The notes under the pieces are model-generated. The model searched no databases, was not told the DNA's origin, and saw only the letters and a list, made by a program, of their open reading frames with translations. 7,168 bases of DNA from an uncultured Paraglaciecola sp. (GTDB lineage Bacteria > Pseudomonadota > Gammaproteobacteria > Enterobacterales > Alteromonadaceae). Position numbers and translations under genes: made by a program. Within the stretch, counting starts at the first letter, position 1, and every line of letters begins with the position of its first letter. Shown one piece after another: positions 248 through 6,546 of this stretch. The stretch spans positions 1 to 7,168 of the forward strand of contig CAJQKX010000673.1 of assembly GCA_905479025.1 (NCBI GenBank), given 5' to 3'.

Positions 248-356
248 TTGTCATTGATTTTGTAGGCCACAGATGGCGTGTCATCGAAAAATTTTGTTCT
301 TCGAAGTATTGCACTTCAATCAAGGCTGGCCTGTTACAAGATTCACCTATGTTGGG

Positions 357-384
357 GCACTCAGAGTTTTATAACTCTGAGTGC
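357..384. repeat. Perfect inverted repeat, 12-bp arms, 4-nt loop
   Basis: The left arm GCACTCAGAGTT (357-368) and right arm AACTCTGAGTGC (373-384) are exact reverse complements separated by TTAT. A G-T wobble pair could add one step at 356/385. The hairpin lies 109 bases after the wecC stop and has no T-run behind it, so it is not a classical intrinsic terminator. It could be an mRNA 3'-end processing or stability hairpin, a REP-like unit, or a binding site for a dimeric protein. The sequence shows only the symmetry; the role is unknown. Confidence 0.85.
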
Positions 385-440
385 TGCGCAGTTAAAGGTT
401 CATTTTAGACACGAAAGGATCAATCAGTGAGGTATTACTA

Positions 441-545
441 ATGGTTGAGTATAATAAGGCTGAACGGTTTAACGATGGCGATCCGAGCGAGGTAGTGCTT
501 GTGGGTGCACTAGGCATTGATAAATTAAATTTATCACCCCTGTAA
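441..545 (+). CDS. Possible 34-residue small protein, unknown
   Basis: This ATG-started frame encodes MVEYNKAERFNDGDPSEVVL followed by VGALGIDKLNLSPL and a TAA stop. A GAGG motif at 429-432 sits 8 bases before the ATG, a normal spacing for translation. The product is acidic and soluble in its first half and mildly hydrophobic in its second, with no signal peptide or membrane segment. I recognise no family. The last codons overlap a near-perfect AT-rich inverted repeat (518-536). It could be a true small protein, the 5' remnant of a decayed gene, or chance. The ribosome binding site is the only positive evidence. Confidence 0.22.
   Translation: MVEYNKAERFNDGDPSEVVLVGALGIDKLNLSPL
518..536. repeat. 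AT-rich inverted repeat, 9-bp arms
   Basis: TGATAAATT and AATTTATCA are exact reverse complements around a single central A at 527. A one-base loop cannot form a relaxed RNA hairpin, so it looks more like a symmetrical protein-binding site (operator-like) or chance symmetry in AT-rich DNA. It overlaps the end of the small ORF at 441-545. Confidence 0.5.
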
Positions 546-735
546 ATGTGGAGCTCCATGTCAGAATTTTAAGGATGAATGGGCTAGCGGCGGCAAATGT
601 AGTTCCCCGGCGTCTGATTTTCCCAGTATTTGATCTTGCCAGGATTGGCTGGCTTTTAGCCGGTTGTCTCTATAGGCTGTAACTCTGTGAGTATTTGATT
701 TTCGGGGGCTTCGCCAGCAGTTGGCGTTCGTATTT

Positions 736-764
736 TTGGCCTCGTAATCCAACGAGAATAACAT
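736..764 (+). promoter_or_regulatory. Candidate sigma-70 promoter upstream of wzy
   Basis: A TTGGCC (736-741) and a TAACAT (759-764) are separated by 17 bases. Each hexamer matches 4 of 6 consensus positions. Transcription would start near 771, exactly at the base of the terminator-like hairpin that follows. If both are real, the wzy transcript would begin with a strong hairpin and T-run and might be attenuated. If the hairpin is simply a terminator for upstream transcription, this promoter is likely a chance match. Confidence 0.25.
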
Positions 765-770
765 TTTAAT

Positions 771-804
771 AATGGCCGATTTTAATCGGTCATTGTAATT
801 TTTT
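771..804 (+). terminator. Rho-independent terminator-like hairpin before wzy
   Basis: Arms AATGGCCGAT (771-780) and ATCGGTCATT (785-794) pair over 10 positions with one G-T wobble around a TTTA loop. A run of six T follows at 799-804, after a 4-base GTAA gap. The stem is only moderately GC-rich and the T-run is slightly displaced, so efficiency is uncertain. It would end transcription coming from wecC or the small ORF, or act as a leader attenuator for wzy, whose start codon is 85 bases further on. Confidence 0.55.
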
Positions 805-889
805 CTAACTGACGACGCGTGGAAGTTGATAGGGGATTGAAGGCGGCATAGTTGTTTGAAGTAGCGATTAACAGTTGAGATAAGGTTAG

Positions 890-2077
890 ATGAATAAATT
901 ATCAGCTATTTTTTGGTGGTTATATATTGCAGTGTCACCAGTGTACTGGGTGCCGCTTATAGGGGTGGCTACTTTTTCTTTTTTCAAGATTTTTCTGATT
1001 GCGGTAGCTGCAATAACAGCTTCTTTGACCTTAATCACCGAAAAGCGAATCACTCTTCCATTTGGTTATCTCGGTATGTTTGGGTTTTTTATATTGTGCT
1101 TCTCATTCTTGCCGGGGGTTATTGGCGGCACGCCGGGTGCAGGCTATAAGATGTTACTTAACGTCTTTTATAGTTTTACTACATTTATAGCGATTGCATT
1201 GCTCTACCAAAAGAATCAGCGCTTGGTGGAGCATCTTTCGTATACAGGATTCATTATCGGTGCTCTGTGTTTCTACGTTGTCTTGGCAGGCCAGGGAGTT
1301 GTGGAAAATTATCGATCACCCATTAATCTAGGCGGTTTTCCTGTGTCCGTTTCAGGCTTTACAGGCCTTAGAACTGGTTGGTCAAACGGCACTGCTTTTT
1401 TCATCCCTTTTTTAATCTATTTGGCCTTTCATAAAAAATCTTACATAATTAAGGCGTTATGCATAGCATGCATCTGTTCCATATTTCTTTCTCAGGTTAC
1501 CGTAGCAGGCCGGAACGGAATGCTTGCATCGGTTCTGGGCGCCTTCCTCATGTTGTACTTCATGAAAAAGCGTCTGCTGCTCATGCTCTTTGGTTTTGTT
1601 ATTTTAGTTTTGGCTTTAGTTTATCTCCCACTCCTCCTTGAGCACCTGCGGTTTGATCGAATAGAATCTTCTGCATCCGTTGATGATTTCAACAAGTTTT
1701 CTGCGGGGCGCCTGGAGAGCTATTATTACGCATTATCTATTATCTTGAAGAACCCTGTGTTCGGTGTTGGGTTCGGCAATACCGATATTGCAGGTCACTC
1801 GATACACAACATGGTTTTAAGATACACCGCGGAAACCGGAATTATTTTTCTGTTTGTATTTTTAGGCTTAGTTGCAGCAGGGCTTTATAAATTGTACCCC
1901 TTTAGAAATAACCCAGCGGCATGTGTGCCAATGGTAGTTATTATTCAGGGCGTGTTAGAGTCGCAATTCGAGCCTGGTGTGTTGTTAGGAAGCTTTCAGA
2001 ATTCCGCGCTGTGGTGGGCATGTGTTGGAATAGCGGGCGCGATTAGCGTTAAGCCCTCTCTGGGTCATATTAAATAA
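890..2077 (+). CDS. wzy: O-antigen polymerase / ligase family membrane protein (Wzy-type)
   Basis: This 395-residue, very hydrophobic protein has roughly 10 to 12 membrane segments, for example near residues 6-20, 22-47, 61-77, 91-106, 118-134, 166-180, 186-204, 229-250, 316-336 and 372-385. The Wzy_C/O-antigen ligase pattern is clear. A GRNG motif lies at 207-210 after a membrane helix. A large periplasmic loop (about 251-315) carries GRLESYYYAL (273 onward), then KNPVFGVGFGN (287-297), then a HN pair at 306-307. Family members join lipid-linked repeat units at the periplasmic face (Wzy) or ligate glycan to lipid A or protein (WaaL/PglL); the two are hard to separate by sequence. Direct linkage to a flippase two bases downstream and to glycosyltransferases favours Wzy. 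AAGG at 882-885 supports the ATG start, with GAGA just upstream; the spacing is a little short. Confidence 0.85.
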   Translation: MNKLSAIFWWLYIAVSPVYWVPLIGVATFSFFKIFLIAVAAITASLTLITEKRITLPFGYLGMFGFFILCFSFLPGVIGGTPGAGYKMLLNVFYSFTTFIAIALLYQKNQRLVEHLSYTGFIIGALCFYVVLAGQGVVENYRSPINLGGFPVSVSGFTGLRTGWSNGTAFFIPFLIYLAFHKKSYIIKALCIACICSIFLSQVTVAGRNGMLASVLGAFLMLYFMKKRLLLMLFGFVILVLALVYLPLLLEHLRFDRIESSASVDDFNKFSAGRLESYYYALSIILKNPVFGVGFGNTDIAGHSIHNMVLRYTAETGIIFLFVFLGLVAAGLYKLYPFRNNPAACVPMVVIIQGVLESQFEPGVLLGSFQNSALWWACVGIAGAISVKPSLGHIK

Positions 2078-2079
2078 TT

Positions 2080-3450
2080 ATGCGTCCATTAAAGATGACG
2101 AGATCGCTTGCTTTTACATTCATAGAAGTTCTTGTGAGGGGGATTAATTGGTCTTTCTTATTTCTGGCTGCTCTTTTTTTGCCCACCGAAAGCTATGGAT
2201 CATTATCGATAATAGTTGCAATCGAGGCAATGTTAGTAGTCTTGTTAATTGCTGGTTATGACAAAAGCGCATTGCGCTTCTTAGCTGATGGCGAACAAAA
2301 TTGTAATTCGAATGAGGTTTTCAGCGGGTGGGTTGTCGTTTCGTTAGCTGTGTGCGTTTTAGTTATAGTGTCTCATTACTTCATTACTTGGAATGAACGA
2401 GTTTATTTGAAAGGAGGTATGTTTTATTTGGGGTTGGCAGCCTTTTTTTTAGTGGCTTTGAATCGATTTTTTGCTGCCATATTTAGGGCCACTGATGGCA
2501 TATGGGAGTTTGTTTTTCTAAGGTTGGGTTGTTTGTTTTTGAAATTAGTTATATTTATATATTTTCTGGAACATTATGCAGTAGCAGCCGAGAGCTATGT
2601 ACTCGCTACTTTTGTGGCATTTTTAGCCAGCACTTTTTTAGTTTTCAAAGTTTCGAAATCCGAGTCATTTAGTAAAAAAAACGTTAAGGCTGCCTCATTG
2701 TATGCTCTGCCGTTTCTTCCTCATGCGCTGAGTGGAATTTTACTGGCCAACATTGACAGAGTGATGATCGATTCTTTTCTCACCCTTAACGACGTTGCTG
2801 TTTACAGCTTTGCCTATACACTGGGCTCGGCATTGTCTTTCTTTTATGCGATTGTTGCTGTGACCTATGAAAAAAAACTTTTTTCGGTTGCCTCTGATTT
2901 CTCTGCAGTCCATTCACTTCAGAAAGAATATTTTATTTTTCTAAATGTGATTGGTTTTTTGATGCTTCCGGTAGTTTATGGAATTGCGTTTTTTATTGGT
3001 AACTTTCGCGAGGGTTATGCAGGTGAGGAATTTATTCAAATAGTTTTGATGGTGTACGTCTCATATATTGTGAACGTTCAGTATTTGAAAGCATCTTATG
3101 GCTTGGCGGTGCATAAACAAAGCGTTTCAATTGCGTGGGTAACAATGTCCAGTATGTTTTTGAACGTCGCGCTAAATTTGATTCTTCTTGAACGGATCGG
3201 TGTAATTGGTGCCGCAGTTGCGACGTTGCTAAGTTACATATTTTTATCAATTGTCATAACTGGAGTCGCCCAGCAAAAAACAAAAATAGTAATATTTGAT
3301 TATGACAGTAAAATATTTTCTTCTTTAATTGCCGTACTGATAGTTTTGTTATGGTATAACCCTTTATGGGGGGTGCTTTTTGCTGTGCTGGTGGCGCTAT
3401 TTCAAATCACGCGTTGTGCCAAGGCTGCTAAGATCTTATTTTTGGATTAG
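2080..3450 (+). CDS. wzx: Polysaccharide flippase, Wzx-type (MOP/MATE-like superfamily)
   Basis: This 456-residue protein with about 12 to 14 hydrophobic segments matches the polysaccharide biosynthesis (Wzx/RfbX) family in length and layout. Around residues 210-230 it has LPFLPHALSGI followed by NIDRVMID, the usual half-way signature of these exporters. Near 364-386 it has ALNLILLERIGVIGAAVATL, typical of the family's second half. Wzx moves undecaprenyl-diphosphate-linked repeat units from the cytoplasmic to the periplasmic face of the inner membrane. The ATG lies two bases after the wzy stop with no clear Shine-Dalgarno, so translational coupling to wzy is likely; Met6 (2095) is an alternative start. 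The last 15 bases overlap the 3' end of the convergent hydrolase gene, leaving no separate terminator between them. Confidence 0.87.
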   Translation: MRPLKMTRSLAFTFIEVLVRGINWSFLFLAALFLPTESYGSLSIIVAIEAMLVVLLIAGYDKSALRFLADGEQNCNSNEVFSGWVVVSLAVCVLVIVSHYFITWNERVYLKGGMFYLGLAAFFLVALNRFFAAIFRATDGIWEFVFLRLGCLFLKLVIFIYFLEHYAVAAESYVLATFVAFLASTFLVFKVSKSESFSKKNVKAASLYALPFLPHALSGILLANIDRVMIDSFLTLNDVAVYSFAYTLGSALSFFYAIVAVTYEKKLFSVASDFSAVHSLQKEYFIFLNVIGFLMLPVVYGIAFFIGNFREGYAGEEFIQIVLMVYVSYIVNVQYLKASYGLAVHKQSVSIAWVTMSSMFLNVALNLILLERIGVIGAAVATLLSYIFLSIVITGVAQQKTKIVIFDYDSKIFSSLIAVLIVLLWYNPLWGVLFAVLVALFQITRCAKAAKILFLD

Positions 3451-4308
3451 GTTGTTTTTTTGTATGAAGTCCTTTGTTGCTTGCCACCACTCTGCTTCGG
3501 GATTCCATGCGCTTTGGTGGGTCCCTCCTGGCGACCAGATTACTATGCCGTCAGCATGTTGATATACTACTTGAAGCTGGAGTAACCAGAATTTATAGTC
3601 GATGAATTTATATTTTTTAGCTTTGTTACTTCCATGATACTGCGGCCAGACAAAGGCTATAACGGTTTTGCCGTATTTCTTTGCTTCGTTGATATTCGCA
3701 ACTGCATATTTTTTCCAGTTATCCGGGTCATCGTAGAACGTATAAAGAGATGGGTAAATGACGTCGGAGTATTGGGCTATGGGATTCAAAAACGTATTTG
3801 CTTGCTCCCACTTGTGTACATTTTTGTTTTTAGTGGGGGTATGGTAATCCCTCAAGGGAAACATCGAGTAAATCCCGATTTTTTTTTCAGGTTGAATGGC
3901 CCGGATCGTAGCAATAGTGCTGGCGTGCTTTGCGATGCTTCGCTTCACGGCGGTTGTCCGATGCCTTCTTATGTCAAGCGGCCAATGTTCGATGTCAATG
4001 CAGACGAATTCATCAGGGCCTAATTTATTCTCTGCTAGCGTAGTGATGTGAGCGATATTTGGAAATTTTTCTGCTTTTTTTGAGGGCCAGAATTCTGAAG
4101 CGTAAATTACACGAATACCGTCGAATCCATGCTGTTTTAAATTAGGCTGATTTTTAAAGCGCATCTCGTTGAGCAGAAAAAAGGGTTTATCGCTTATAGG
4201 CGAATTTGTGGCGGTATTGTTGGTTGCGTGACTGGTTATATGGGTAGTTGCGACAGAAAAAAATAAAAGGAAAGCTTTTACATGAAAAACAAAGTTGTGA
4301 TTATCCAA
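3436..4308 (-). CDS. Secreted hyaluronidase-like glycoside hydrolase (TIM-barrel type), putative
   Basis: This 290-residue protein starts at a TTG (4308-4306). The start is supported by a perfect AAGGAGG (4324-4318 on the minus strand) 9 bases upstream and by the lack of another in-frame start before Met49. Residues 12-20 (AFLLFFSVA) and a possible Ser-His-Ala cleavage site at 26-28 suggest a signal peptide, although its n-region is weakly charged. The mature part carries, in order, CIDIEHWP (103-110), IYPSLYTFYDD (184-194), AFVWPQYHG (218-226) and DGIVIWSPGG (253-262). A D-x-E at 105-107 followed by W-P, then YPS.Y, then G.V.W near the end, resembles the strand-end motifs of GH56 hyaluronidases and other retaining hydrolases that use substrate-assisted catalysis. 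By that analogy Asp105 and Glu107 would be catalytic. The fold and chemistry are inferred from these motifs; the substrate is unknown, plausibly the polymer made by this locus. The gene overlaps both + strand neighbours. Confidence 0.6.
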   Translation of the reverse strand: MDNHNFVFHVKAFLLFFSVATTHITSHATNNTATNSPISDKPFFLLNEMRFKNQPNLKQHGFDGIRVIYASEFWPSKKAEKFPNIAHITTLAENKLGPDEFVCIDIEHWPLDIRRHRTTAVKRSIAKHASTIATIRAIQPEKKIGIYSMFPLRDYHTPTKNKNVHKWEQANTFLNPIAQYSDVIYPSLYTFYDDPDNWKKYAVANINEAKKYGKTVIAFVWPQYHGSNKAKKYKFIDYKFWLLQLQVVYQHADGIVIWSPGGTHQSAWNPEAEWWQATKDFIQKNNLIQK

Positions 4309-5331
4309 GAATTTATCCCTCCTTACAGGGTTCCTTTTTTTGATCGGCTAAATGTTGCGTTGAATGGTAATCTGACTCTATATGTGGCTCGGAAAAATGC
4401 TGACATTTCGTGCGAACAGCGGCTTTTGAAAATCAGGTCTAAGGCCGGCTTTAAGTTTGACAATTGTAGCACGAGCGAATTTGCCGATTACGATGTGGTT
4501 GTAATGATGTTTGATTTGCGTTGGTTTTTATTATATCGACTGCTATTTCGTCTTCCCAAAAAAACAGTGCTCTGGGGGCACGGCATGGGGCAGTATGCGC
4601 TATTAGCCAGGGTCAAAGCCATCCTTATTAAGCGCTCTATGGGCTTCATTGCTTATGAAAGTGACGGTGCAGATTATTTTGAGCCTTATGGTGTTGAACG
4701 AAATAAGCTTGCATATATGGGAAATACCGTAGAGGTCTGTGATTACCATTTTTCTGAGAAAGATAGGTGCTTTTTTACCTACATGGGGCGATTGCAGCCT
4801 CGGAAAAGACTTTCCGATTTTTTAAAAGCATATGCTTTGCTTAGCGATGAGCATCAAAGTCGGGCGCAAGTATTGATATTAGGTGATGGAGAGATAAAGT
4901 TTGAGCTTGAGGTGCTATCGAAAAAATTAGGAATTTCGAGCAAATGCAGATTCGTGCCAGGGGTTTATGACCAAAGAGAGATCGGGAAGTGGCTCGAGAA
5001 ATCCATTGCTTACGTAAGCCCTGGCCACGTTGGTTTAGGCGTGTTGCATACATTTGCTTATGGTGTGCCCGTAATCACAAGGGCTGGCGCGCCTCACGCG
5101 CCTGAAGTCTGCAATGTGATTGACGGTGAAACGGGCTTCTTAGTCGGGGATACATTACAAGCGTTGGTAGAAAGCATGGCCCTCTATATGTCGGATCCTG
5201 AGCAGCATATGCGGCATTGTCGCGCAGCTTATAAGCGCTATGCGAACGAGCGAACAATGGCGAAAATGGTTGGGCGTTTTGTTTCTGGGTTAGAGCAATT
5301 TACTTCTAATAGTTCAAATGAAATTAATTGA
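4282..5331 (+). CDS. GT4-type glycosyltransferase with altered EX7E motif
   Basis: This 349-residue cytoplasmic, GT-B-fold enzyme is expected to add one sugar from a nucleotide donor to the growing lipid-linked repeat unit. The N-terminus has IPPYRVPFFDRLN (12-24), an acceptor-domain signature, and VLWGHGMG (96-103). The C-terminal Glycos_transf_1 domain has YMGRLQPRKRL (167-177), VLILGDGE (197-204), SPGHVGLGVLHTFAYGVPVI (246-265) and VIDGETGFLV (279-288). The usual E-x7-E of GT4 enzymes is replaced by Gly248 and His256. I recall a subgroup with SPGNVGLTAIH-like motifs, so this may be normal for its clade. An AAGG (4267-4270) lies 11 bases before the ATG; the start is fixed by IPPYR. The first 27 bases overlap the divergent hydrolase gene. 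Donor and linkage cannot be read from sequence. Confidence 0.85.
   Translation: MKNKVVIIQEFIPPYRVPFFDRLNVALNGNLTLYVARKNADISCEQRLLKIRSKAGFKFDNCSTSEFADYDVVVMMFDLRWFLLYRLLFRLPKKTVLWGHGMGQYALLARVKAILIKRSMGFIAYESDGADYFEPYGVERNKLAYMGNTVEVCDYHFSEKDRCFFTYMGRLQPRKRLSDFLKAYALLSDEHQSRAQVLILGDGEIKFELEVLSKKLGISSKCRFVPGVYDQREIGKWLEKSIAYVSPGHVGLGVLHTFAYGVPVITRAGAPHAPEVCNVIDGETGFLVGDTLQALVESMALYMSDPEQHMRHCRAAYKRYANERTMAKMVGRFVSGLEQFTSNSSNEIN
4318..4324 (-). promoter_or_regulatory. Perfect Shine-Dalgarno of the antisense hydrolase gene
   Basis: On the minus strand this reads AAGGAGG, 9 bases before the TTG start at 4308, and decides that start. On the plus strand the same bases are the two proline codons and first tyrosine base of the conserved I-P-P-Y-R motif (residues 12-16) of the divergent glycosyltransferase. 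One short segment therefore serves as a ribosome site on one strand and a family motif on the other. Confidence 0.75.
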
Positions 5332-5406: not shown

Positions 5407-6546
5407 ATGAAAATAGCAGTAATCGCACACGGCCTTAGAGTTGCTGGCGGCCGCTCGGTCGCGCAGAATATCATTGCATCTCTCGCGCGTGCGGGAGTTG
5501 AGCATGAATATCTGCTGGTAATGCCGAAAGGTGTGGGTTACGAGGAAATAGAGCAGCCCTATTCGGCCACAGCATATTATGTCGCGGTTCCCGGTGGATT
5601 CATCGGGCGTGCTGTATATGACGCAATTTTTTTACCCGCACTGGTCAAACGCTGGGAGCCTGATTGTATCTTCTGTCTCGGTAATTTTGGATTAAGTGTT
5701 GGGGGAGCGAAACAAGCTGTGCTTTTTCATAAATCTCACTTTGTTTATCCCGAGGTATCATTTGCCCTCACCCCTTCTGACCGGCTTAAAAACTGCATTA
5801 TCGAATCGCAGATTCGTAGATCCTTGCCGTTTACCGATCTTGTTTTTTGTCAAACTGAGGCTTTGAAGCAGCGCTATATCGCTCGCTTCAATCCCGTAGC
5901 CAATGTCGAGTTATTGCCAAATGTAGTGTCGAAAAGCGTACTGGCCGGTAATTCTGATTTATCGATTCTGCCCGCGCCGCTTCAGCGTGATGTTGTGCGG
6001 TTAAAATTTAAGTTATTTGCACTAACACGCTACTACTCGCACAAAAATCTTGAGGCATTACTCGCCGTTTTCGACAAGTATCGATCGGAGTTGAAGGATG
6101 TTATTTGTATATTAACGATTGATGCGAGCGACCATGCTGATGCAGCACGGTTACTCAAGAAAATCGAAACGTTGGGGCTGTCGAATCAGTTAATCAATAT
6201 CGGCTCGGTAGCGCAGCAGCTGTTGCCAACACTATATGAATTCAGTGATGCTCTGATATTGCCTACGTTACTCGAGTCTTTTAGTGGTACTTATGTTGAG
6301 GCAATGCGTTACCGTACTCCAATACTAACCAGCGGGCGTGATTTTGCTCAGGCTGTTTGCAAGCAAGCCGCTTTATATTTTGATCCACTTGATCCTGAAA
6401 GCATTCTCGATGTTATTCTTAGGCTGAAAACTGATACAAAGCTCGGCGATGAGCTGGTAGCACTTGGAAGTGAAAGATTGCAGGAACTACCCAGCGATTG
6501 GGATCTTGTTGTGACCGATGCTCTTGCCAAACTTGTAGCTTTATAG
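5407..6546 (+). CDS. GT4-type glycosyltransferase, second copy
   Basis: This 379-residue GT-B enzyme is unrelated in detail to the one before it. The N-terminal domain begins MKIAVIAHGLRVAGGRSVAQ, with the glycine-rich first loop typical of GT4. It continues with CLGNFGL (90-96) and VFCQTEALKQRY (146-157). The C-terminal domain has LFALTRYYSHKNLEALL (203-219) and LPTLLESFSGTYVEAM (285-300). The complete E-x7-E motif is present as Glu290 and Glu298; the first contacts the acceptor or donor phosphate region and the second the donor ribose in characterised relatives. It probably adds another sugar of the repeat unit in the cytoplasm. AGGG (5396-5399) lies 7 bases before the ATG. It is separated from the previous gene by 75 AT-rich bases without a clear terminator or promoter, so co-transcription is likely. 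Donor and linkage are unknown. Confidence 0.86.
   Translation: MKIAVIAHGLRVAGGRSVAQNIIASLARAGVEHEYLLVMPKGVGYEEIEQPYSATAYYVAVPGGFIGRAVYDAIFLPALVKRWEPDCIFCLGNFGLSVGGAKQAVLFHKSHFVYPEVSFALTPSDRLKNCIIESQIRRSLPFTDLVFCQTEALKQRYIARFNPVANVELLPNVVSKSVLAGNSDLSILPAPLQRDVVRLKFKLFALTRYYSHKNLEALLAVFDKYRSELKDVICILTIDASDHADAARLLKKIETLGLSNQLINIGSVAQQLLPTLYEFSDALILPTLLESFSGTYVEAMRYRTPILTSGRDFAQAVCKQAALYFDPLDPESILDVILRLKTDTKLGDELVALGSERLQELPSDWDLVVTDALAKLVAL

What the first reader, a model, noticed from the sequence alone, without database searches (positions are those of the whole stretch)
3436..4324. Reverse-strand hydrolase gene embedded in a + strand polysaccharide operon, overlapping both neighbours
The minus-strand gene shares 15 bases with the end of wzx and 27 bases with the start of the next glycosyltransferase. 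There is no free space for a separate terminator or divergent promoter region. I see no good promoter for the glycosyltransferases inside the hydrolase gene. If the + strand transcript runs from wzy through to the second glycosyltransferase, it contains a full antisense copy of the hydrolase mRNA. That is the layout described as a noncontiguous operon or excludon, in which expression of the two strands is mutually regulated. Here it could tie polymer synthesis against polymer degradation.
Basis: partly seen in the sequence, partly recalled or inferred. Interest (0 to 1): 0.72.

Follow-up and report, generated by a model that had tools for sequence, protein, structure and literature searches.

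The report
Backward hydrolase gene inside polysaccharide operon
A gene for a secreted enzyme that probably cuts sugar polymers sits backwards inside a polysaccharide-making gene cluster and overlaps both neighbours; most relatives examined carry it forwards, so the layout is a local oddity in which the two strands may interfere, not a proven switch.

Summary
The overlaps are real. The minus-strand gene 3436-4308 shares 15 bp with wzx and 27 bp with the next glycosyltransferase, GT1. The 27-bp overlap depends on a TTG start. That start is well supported: a perfect TAAGGAGG Shine-Dalgarno (-12.6 kcal/mol, strongest of seven starts tested) lies inside GT1's Pro-Pro-Tyr codons, and the alternative ATG would remove the signal-like N-terminus and F43, invariant in all 26 aligned sequences.

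The product has the fold of GH56 hyaluronidases. Such genes recur in bacterial exopolysaccharide and exosortase clusters. Of 55 related genes, 46 point the same way as both neighbours, 3 are embedded antisense, and none overlaps both neighbours. In one probable gammaproteobacterium the order wzy-hydrolase-GT4 occurs on one strand. The reversed orientation here is most simply a lineage-specific rearrangement; the closest relatives' DNA was out of reach.

The layout fits a noncontiguous operon, and terminator- and promoter-like sites are at chance numbers. Overlapping transcription is likely; mutual regulation is untested. The "synthesis against degradation" logic is weakened, because relatives mostly encode the hydrolase on the same strand as the synthesis genes.

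The parts
769..796 (+). intrinsic-terminator-like hairpin upstream of wzy; possible upstream border of the transcription unit
   Evidence: 12-pair stem followed by T-run
890..2077 (+). wzy-like O-antigen polymerase/ligase
   Evidence: PF04932 E 1.1e-11
2080..3450 (+). wzx-like polysaccharide flippase
   Evidence: PF01943 E 3.2e-15
3436..3450 (.). 15-bp tail-to-tail overlap of wzx and hydrolase
3436..4308 (-). GH56-like glycoside hydrolase with signal-like N-terminus, 290 aa, TTG start
4318..4325 (-). Shine-Dalgarno TAAGGAGG of the hydrolase, inside GT1 Pro-Pro-Tyr codons
   Evidence: -12.6 kcal/mol duplex with anti-SD
4282..4308 (.). 27-bp head-to-head coding overlap of hydrolase and GT1, codons in exact complementary register
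   Evidence: 27 is the only compatible overlap length of 9-69 bp for this pair of proteins
4267..4271 (+). AAGGA, likely ribosome-binding site of GT1, lying inside the hydrolase gene
   Evidence: -5.6 kcal/mol
4241..4307 (+). 14-bp hairpin (4241-4254 with 4294-4307) holding the GT1 start in its loop on a read-through transcript
   Evidence: 4 of 200 shuffles as stable; same stem, whose overall stability is ordinary (86 of 200)
4282..5331 (+). GT1, GT4-type glycosyltransferase
   Evidence: PF00534 E 2.5e-22
4530..4559 (-). candidate promoter TTGGGA-18-TATAAT for the hydrolase, inside GT1
   Evidence: 10 of 12; 122 of 2000 shuffles as good
5407..6546 (+). GT2, second GT4-type glycosyltransferase
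   Evidence: PF00534 E 8.5e-15

Best explanation
This is an exopolysaccharide (or O-antigen-like) synthesis cluster whose accessory polymer hydrolase, a probably secreted GH56-fold enzyme, lies reversed relative to most relatives. The hydrolase starts translation from a ribosome-binding site that exists because GT1's Pro-Pro-Tyr motif reads as TAAGGAGG on the other strand. Shown: coding overlaps, ribosome-binding site, predicted fold, unusual orientation among the relatives examined. Inferred: the plus-strand transcript reads through from wzy to GT2 and carries a full antisense copy of the hydrolase mRNA; the hydrolase is transcribed from inside GT1, so the paired RNAs cover both translation starts. 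Some transcriptional interference or RNase III cutting is likely to follow. The enzyme probably trims or clears its own polymer in the periplasm, as AlgL does for alginate. It need not act as a switch.
Against: No RNA data; co-transcription of wzx and GT1 is assumed. Terminator-like plus-strand hairpins do exist: inside wzx at 3359-3374 (about -7.5 kcal/mol), at the end of wzx (-4 to -5) and inside the hydrolase at 3662-3674 (up to -9.7); any could end some transcripts. The candidate hydrolase promoter is not significant on its own (122 of 2000). Reversal rests on relatives at most 38.5% identical. When only rows of known orientation are kept, well-supported branches force just one change, so one antisense origin is not excluded, though no bootstrap tree shows it. 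The orientation in the closest relatives (P0002-P0010) could not be read. The window protein itself has no Pfam GH56 hit.
Confidence: 0.57

Rival explanations
1. A true regulatory noncontiguous operon/excludon: hydrolase and synthesis transcripts shut each other off, giving cells that either build or release polymer.
For: Layout as published for menE-menC-MW1733-ytkD (PMC7154746 passages). Both translation starts lie in the shared stretch. A hairpin holds the GT1 start on the read-through transcript. A candidate minus promoter lies inside GT1.
Against: Not conserved: 46 of 55 relatives are co-directional and none overlaps both neighbours. No feasible start overlap in 3 of 3 linked relative pairs, one of them with a doubtful N-terminus.
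Confidence: 0.25
2. Neutral rearrangement: the hydrolase gene was inserted or inverted backwards and tolerated; overlaps are incidental and GT1-GT2 have their own promoter.
For: Antisense orientation is rare among relatives and not clustered on the tree (500 of 500 label shuffles need as few changes). GH56-like genes are sparse: 1 of 397 other Pseudomonadota genomes sampled and 4 of 219 in the class of G030.
Against: The gene has an unusually strong SD and intact conserved residues, so it is probably in use, and no promoter for GT1 exceeds chance.
Confidence: 0.32
3. The overlap with GT1 is an annotation illusion: the hydrolase starts at ATG 4164 as in P0001, leaving 117 bp between the genes.
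For: The database call P0001 is 242 aa; my own gene caller also chose the short form.
Against: It loses the signal-like N-terminus and invariant F43; SD -1.8 against -12.6 kcal/mol. My caller disfavours overlaps and the database's may too.
Confidence: 0.04

Closest known systems
Noncontiguous operon menE-menC-MW1733-ytkD-MW1731 of Staphylococcus aureus (described in PMC7154746, passages read)
   Same: One opposite-strand gene between co-directional genes; a plus transcript would hold a complete antisense of the inner gene.
   Different: There the shared transcript, transcriptional interference and RNase III cleavage are reported; here only DNA layout. Here both coding ends overlap the neighbours and the inner gene's SD lies in the neighbour's codons.
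GH56 hyaluronidases (bee venom 1fcq, human HYAL1 2pe4)
   Same: Same fold over about 226-243 residues; a D-x-E motif is conserved among the bacterial relatives.
   Different: 14-17% identity, bacterial, small, encoded in a polysaccharide synthesis cluster; substrate unknown.
AlgL and PslG, degrading enzymes encoded in exopolysaccharide clusters (PMC8829089 abstract and outline; PMC9075953 passages)
   Same: A polymer-degrading enzyme encoded with the synthesis genes; AlgL clears the periplasm.
   Different: Different enzyme families (recalled for PslG); algL is described as in the same operon as most alginate synthesis genes, not on the other strand.

Membership tests
Noncontiguous operon / excludon | opposite-strand gene between like-strand genes of one cluster | tested here: met
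Noncontiguous operon / excludon | flanking genes on one transcript across the inner gene | not testable with these tools
   no RNA data; terminator- and promoter-like sites at chance number are only compatible with it
Noncontiguous operon / excludon | reciprocal regulation by interference or RNase III | not testable with these tools
   needs RNA work
GH56 glycoside hydrolases | GH56 fold | tested here: met
GH56 glycoside hydrolases | catalytic D-x-E motif (role recalled, not from a call) | tested here: inconclusive
   D105 nearly invariant and E107 invariant in A1; superposition on the GH56 active site not examined
GH56 glycoside hydrolases | Pfam PF01630 gathering score (a detection threshold) | tested here: not met
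   no hit for the window protein at E<=1, nor for L042's at E<=0.01; a relative, L130, passes at 24.8 against 23.2 bits; 2 of 120 listed homologues, P0055 and P0058, carry PF01630. I therefore call it GH56-like
GH56 glycoside hydrolases | hydrolysis of hyaluronan | not testable with these tools
   needs enzyme assay

The most novel reading that the evidence does not exclude
A glycosyltransferase motif (I-I-Q-x-x-x-P-P-Y) doubles on the opposite strand as a ready-made translation start (TAAGGAGG, 9-base spacer, TTG). A polymer hydrolase has been captured on that start, so the two enzymes share locked, complementary translation starts and their mRNAs pair across both. This would be a compact reciprocal control of building and cutting a polysaccharide.
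Probability: 0.2. Interest if true: 0.65.

Novelty: new variant of a known kind. Interest (0 to 1): 0.42.

Why it matters
If read-through is shown, this would be a polysaccharide-cluster example of a noncontiguous operon with shared start regions as well as a shared transcript. Apart from that, it points to a little-described group: GH56-like enzymes as recurrent parts of bacterial exopolysaccharide and exosortase clusters. In the open-access library searched, no paper holds GH56 with hyaluronidase and exopolysaccharide or with bacteria, gene cluster and biofilm; the 9 papers naming PF01630 or Glyco_hydro_56 are, by listing, mostly about venoms and animals; of 190 papers with 'bacterial hyaluronidase' or 'glycoside hydrolase family 56' the 15 listed do not treat such clusters by title. 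Subscription papers are mostly not covered.

Tried and rejected
Close relatives' DNA: the genome-contig scan gave 19 loci, none above 38% identity; the viral scans gave 0 and 1 loci; plasmids and phages had no GH56 match. GT1 against plasmids gave 29 records, all below 60% identity. The third protein search, with wzx, gave only 12 hits, among them one 35% full-length relative, and no usable context.

Antisense trace in relatives' proteins: a first script had an off-by-one error and was replaced. There P0003's N-terminus fits the antisense of the GT1 start (12.87, best of 119; about 1.5e-5 of random peptides score so high). But its further residues allow no GT1 start codon, and one search found no feasible overlap above 13 bp in 1785 GT1 x GH56 pairs (1781 none, 4 with 11 or 13 bp), and none in the three linked pairs. 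I do not count P0003 as support.

Genome samples with GH56-like matches, centre included: phylum of G011 (Pseudomonadota) 2 of 398; class of G102 1 of 385, G102 itself; class of G005 (Nitrospira) 27 of 196; class of G012 (cyanobacteria) 4 of 194; phylum of G003 (Planctomycetota) 6 of 294; order of G030 1 of 247; class of G030 4 of 219. Only 2 of 17 genomes gave a 16S match.

Rows left out of the orientation count: three duplicate loci (L001, L002, L099); L019 and L011, called but with no counted hydrolase; L136, where the caller found no hydrolase; L005, L007, L008 and L013, never put through that caller; L003, L009 and L016, whose contigs were fetched again as L097, L096 and L095; and genome hits not fetched at length (for example G878, G891, G1305, G1365, two contigs of G1343). 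So 55 genes in 49 loci were counted. Gene calls in these loci are from my own simple caller, not a curated annotation, and 'neighbour' means the nearest call of 100 aa or more.

Tree: one search held 22 database proteins of unknown orientation as 'not antisense'. Without them (44 rows) the best tree still needs 4 changes, but starred branches force only 1 instead of 2. I lowered the best explanation from 0.60 to 0.57 and raised neutral rearrangement from 0.30 to 0.32 for this and for the hairpins named under evidence against.

Rfam: no match in the window at gathering scores. PDB by sequence with the single protein: no convincing match; with the profile, bee hyaluronidase E 7.8e-06.

Full report
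What is there. The window carries the end of a UDP-ManNAc-type dehydrogenase gene, then wzy (890-2077), wzx (2080-3450), a minus-strand gene (3436-4308), GT1 (4282-5331), GT2 (5407-6546) and the start of a further plus-strand ORF. A terminator-like hairpin with a 12-pair stem at 769-796 precedes wzy.

The start of the minus gene. Between the in-frame stop at 4350 and ATG 4164 the only ATG, GTG or TTG is TTG 4308. It follows TAAGGAGG by 9 bases, with -12.6 kcal/mol against the anti-SD. The other six tested starts give -1.8 (ATG 4164) to -5.6 (GT1). The SD is the reverse complement of GT1's Pro-Pro-Tyr codons; among 12 aligned GT1 proteins Y15 and R16 are invariant and 9 have Pro-Pro-Tyr. The ATG 4164 form, which the database has (P0001), lacks F43, invariant in the 26 aligned sequences, and lacks a signal-like N-terminus. 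The 27-bp overlap is therefore well supported.

Where relatives keep it. In 49 loci with 55 related genes (at most 38.5% identical), 46 are co-directional with both neighbours, 6 with one, 3 are embedded antisense (L042, L092, L093), and none overlaps both neighbours. 13 of the 55 overlap one neighbour by 1-4 bp, all on the same strand. Among 51 nearest 5' neighbours up to 21 match GT4-type models and 6 match Wzy_C at E 0.001; among 51 nearest 3' neighbours 12 match exosortase. In L130, a probable gammaproteobacterial locus, the order is wzy-like (below Pfam's cutoff), hydrolase, GT4 on one strand, the last two with a 4-bp overlap. On the best tree the antisense state needs 4 changes for 4 rows; starred branches force 2 with all rows but only 1 with rows of known orientation. 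Single antisense genes of any kind are rare in these loci: 6 of 421 internal genes; one of the six is a GH56-like gene, in L042, with 40- and 170-bp gaps.

Closest relatives. Their DNA was out of reach. Three GH56/GT1 pairs share the same longest-contig length (P0004/P0126 124456, P0010/P0124 27916, P0009/P0136 17399), which implies linkage, orientation unknown. None of the three pairs allows an antisense overlap of the recorded proteins' starts (9-69 bp tested); the window's own pair allows exactly 27 bp. P0004's N-terminus looks truncated, so that one is inconclusive.

Transcription signals. Terminator-like sites in the window number 11 against 8.8 expected. On the plus strand near the junctions they include 3359-3374 inside wzx, a weak hairpin with a T-run at the end of wzx, and 3662-3674 inside the hydrolase (-4 to -9.7 kcal/mol); none stands out, none can be excluded. 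No hairpin with a T-run was found on the minus strand at 3000-3436, so the hydrolase transcript may run on into wzx. The best minus promoter match lies inside GT1 (10 of 12, 122 of 2000 shuffles). Plus matches inside the hydrolase are at chance (1189 of 2000). On a read-through transcript the GT1 start sits in the loop of a 14-bp hairpin (4 of 200 shuffles as stable); the stem persists in a longer fold whose overall stability is ordinary.

Reading. The DNA layout is that of a noncontiguous operon (PMC7154746 passages). Overlapping RNAs are the simplest expectation. That they regulate each other, or set polymer building against cutting, is not shown, and the same-strand arrangement in most relatives speaks for a helper role of the hydrolase, as for AlgL (PMC8829089 abstract and outline). 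I rate it a new variant of a known kind, of moderate interest.

Noticed in passing
L130, L135, L131, L104-L119, L089, L090, L095, L096: GH56-like enzymes are recurrent parts of exopolysaccharide and exosortase clusters in Nitrospira-class, cyanobacterial and probable gammaproteobacterial genomes; 13 of 55 genes overlap a same-strand neighbour by 1-4 bp.
   Followed up: partly
L134:8947-9645 (-) and L136:1947-2504: A GH56-like gene lies in a stretch that looks prophage-like by eye (L134, not tested) and another on an IMG/VR viral contig (L136); these may be phage depolymerases.
   Followed up: no
window 250-889: 640 bp without a convincing gene between the dehydrogenase and wzy, with two terminator-like hairpins at 712-726 and 769-796.
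   Followed up: no
P0003 N-terminus (54% relative): Its first six residues fit the antisense of the GT1 start profile far better than any of 118 other homologues, yet no compatible GT1 start codon follows and no full overlap is feasible; unexplained.
   Followed up: partly
L101, L102, L105, L109: Four Nitrospira-class loci carry two tandem GH56-like genes 444-599 bp apart.
   Followed up: no
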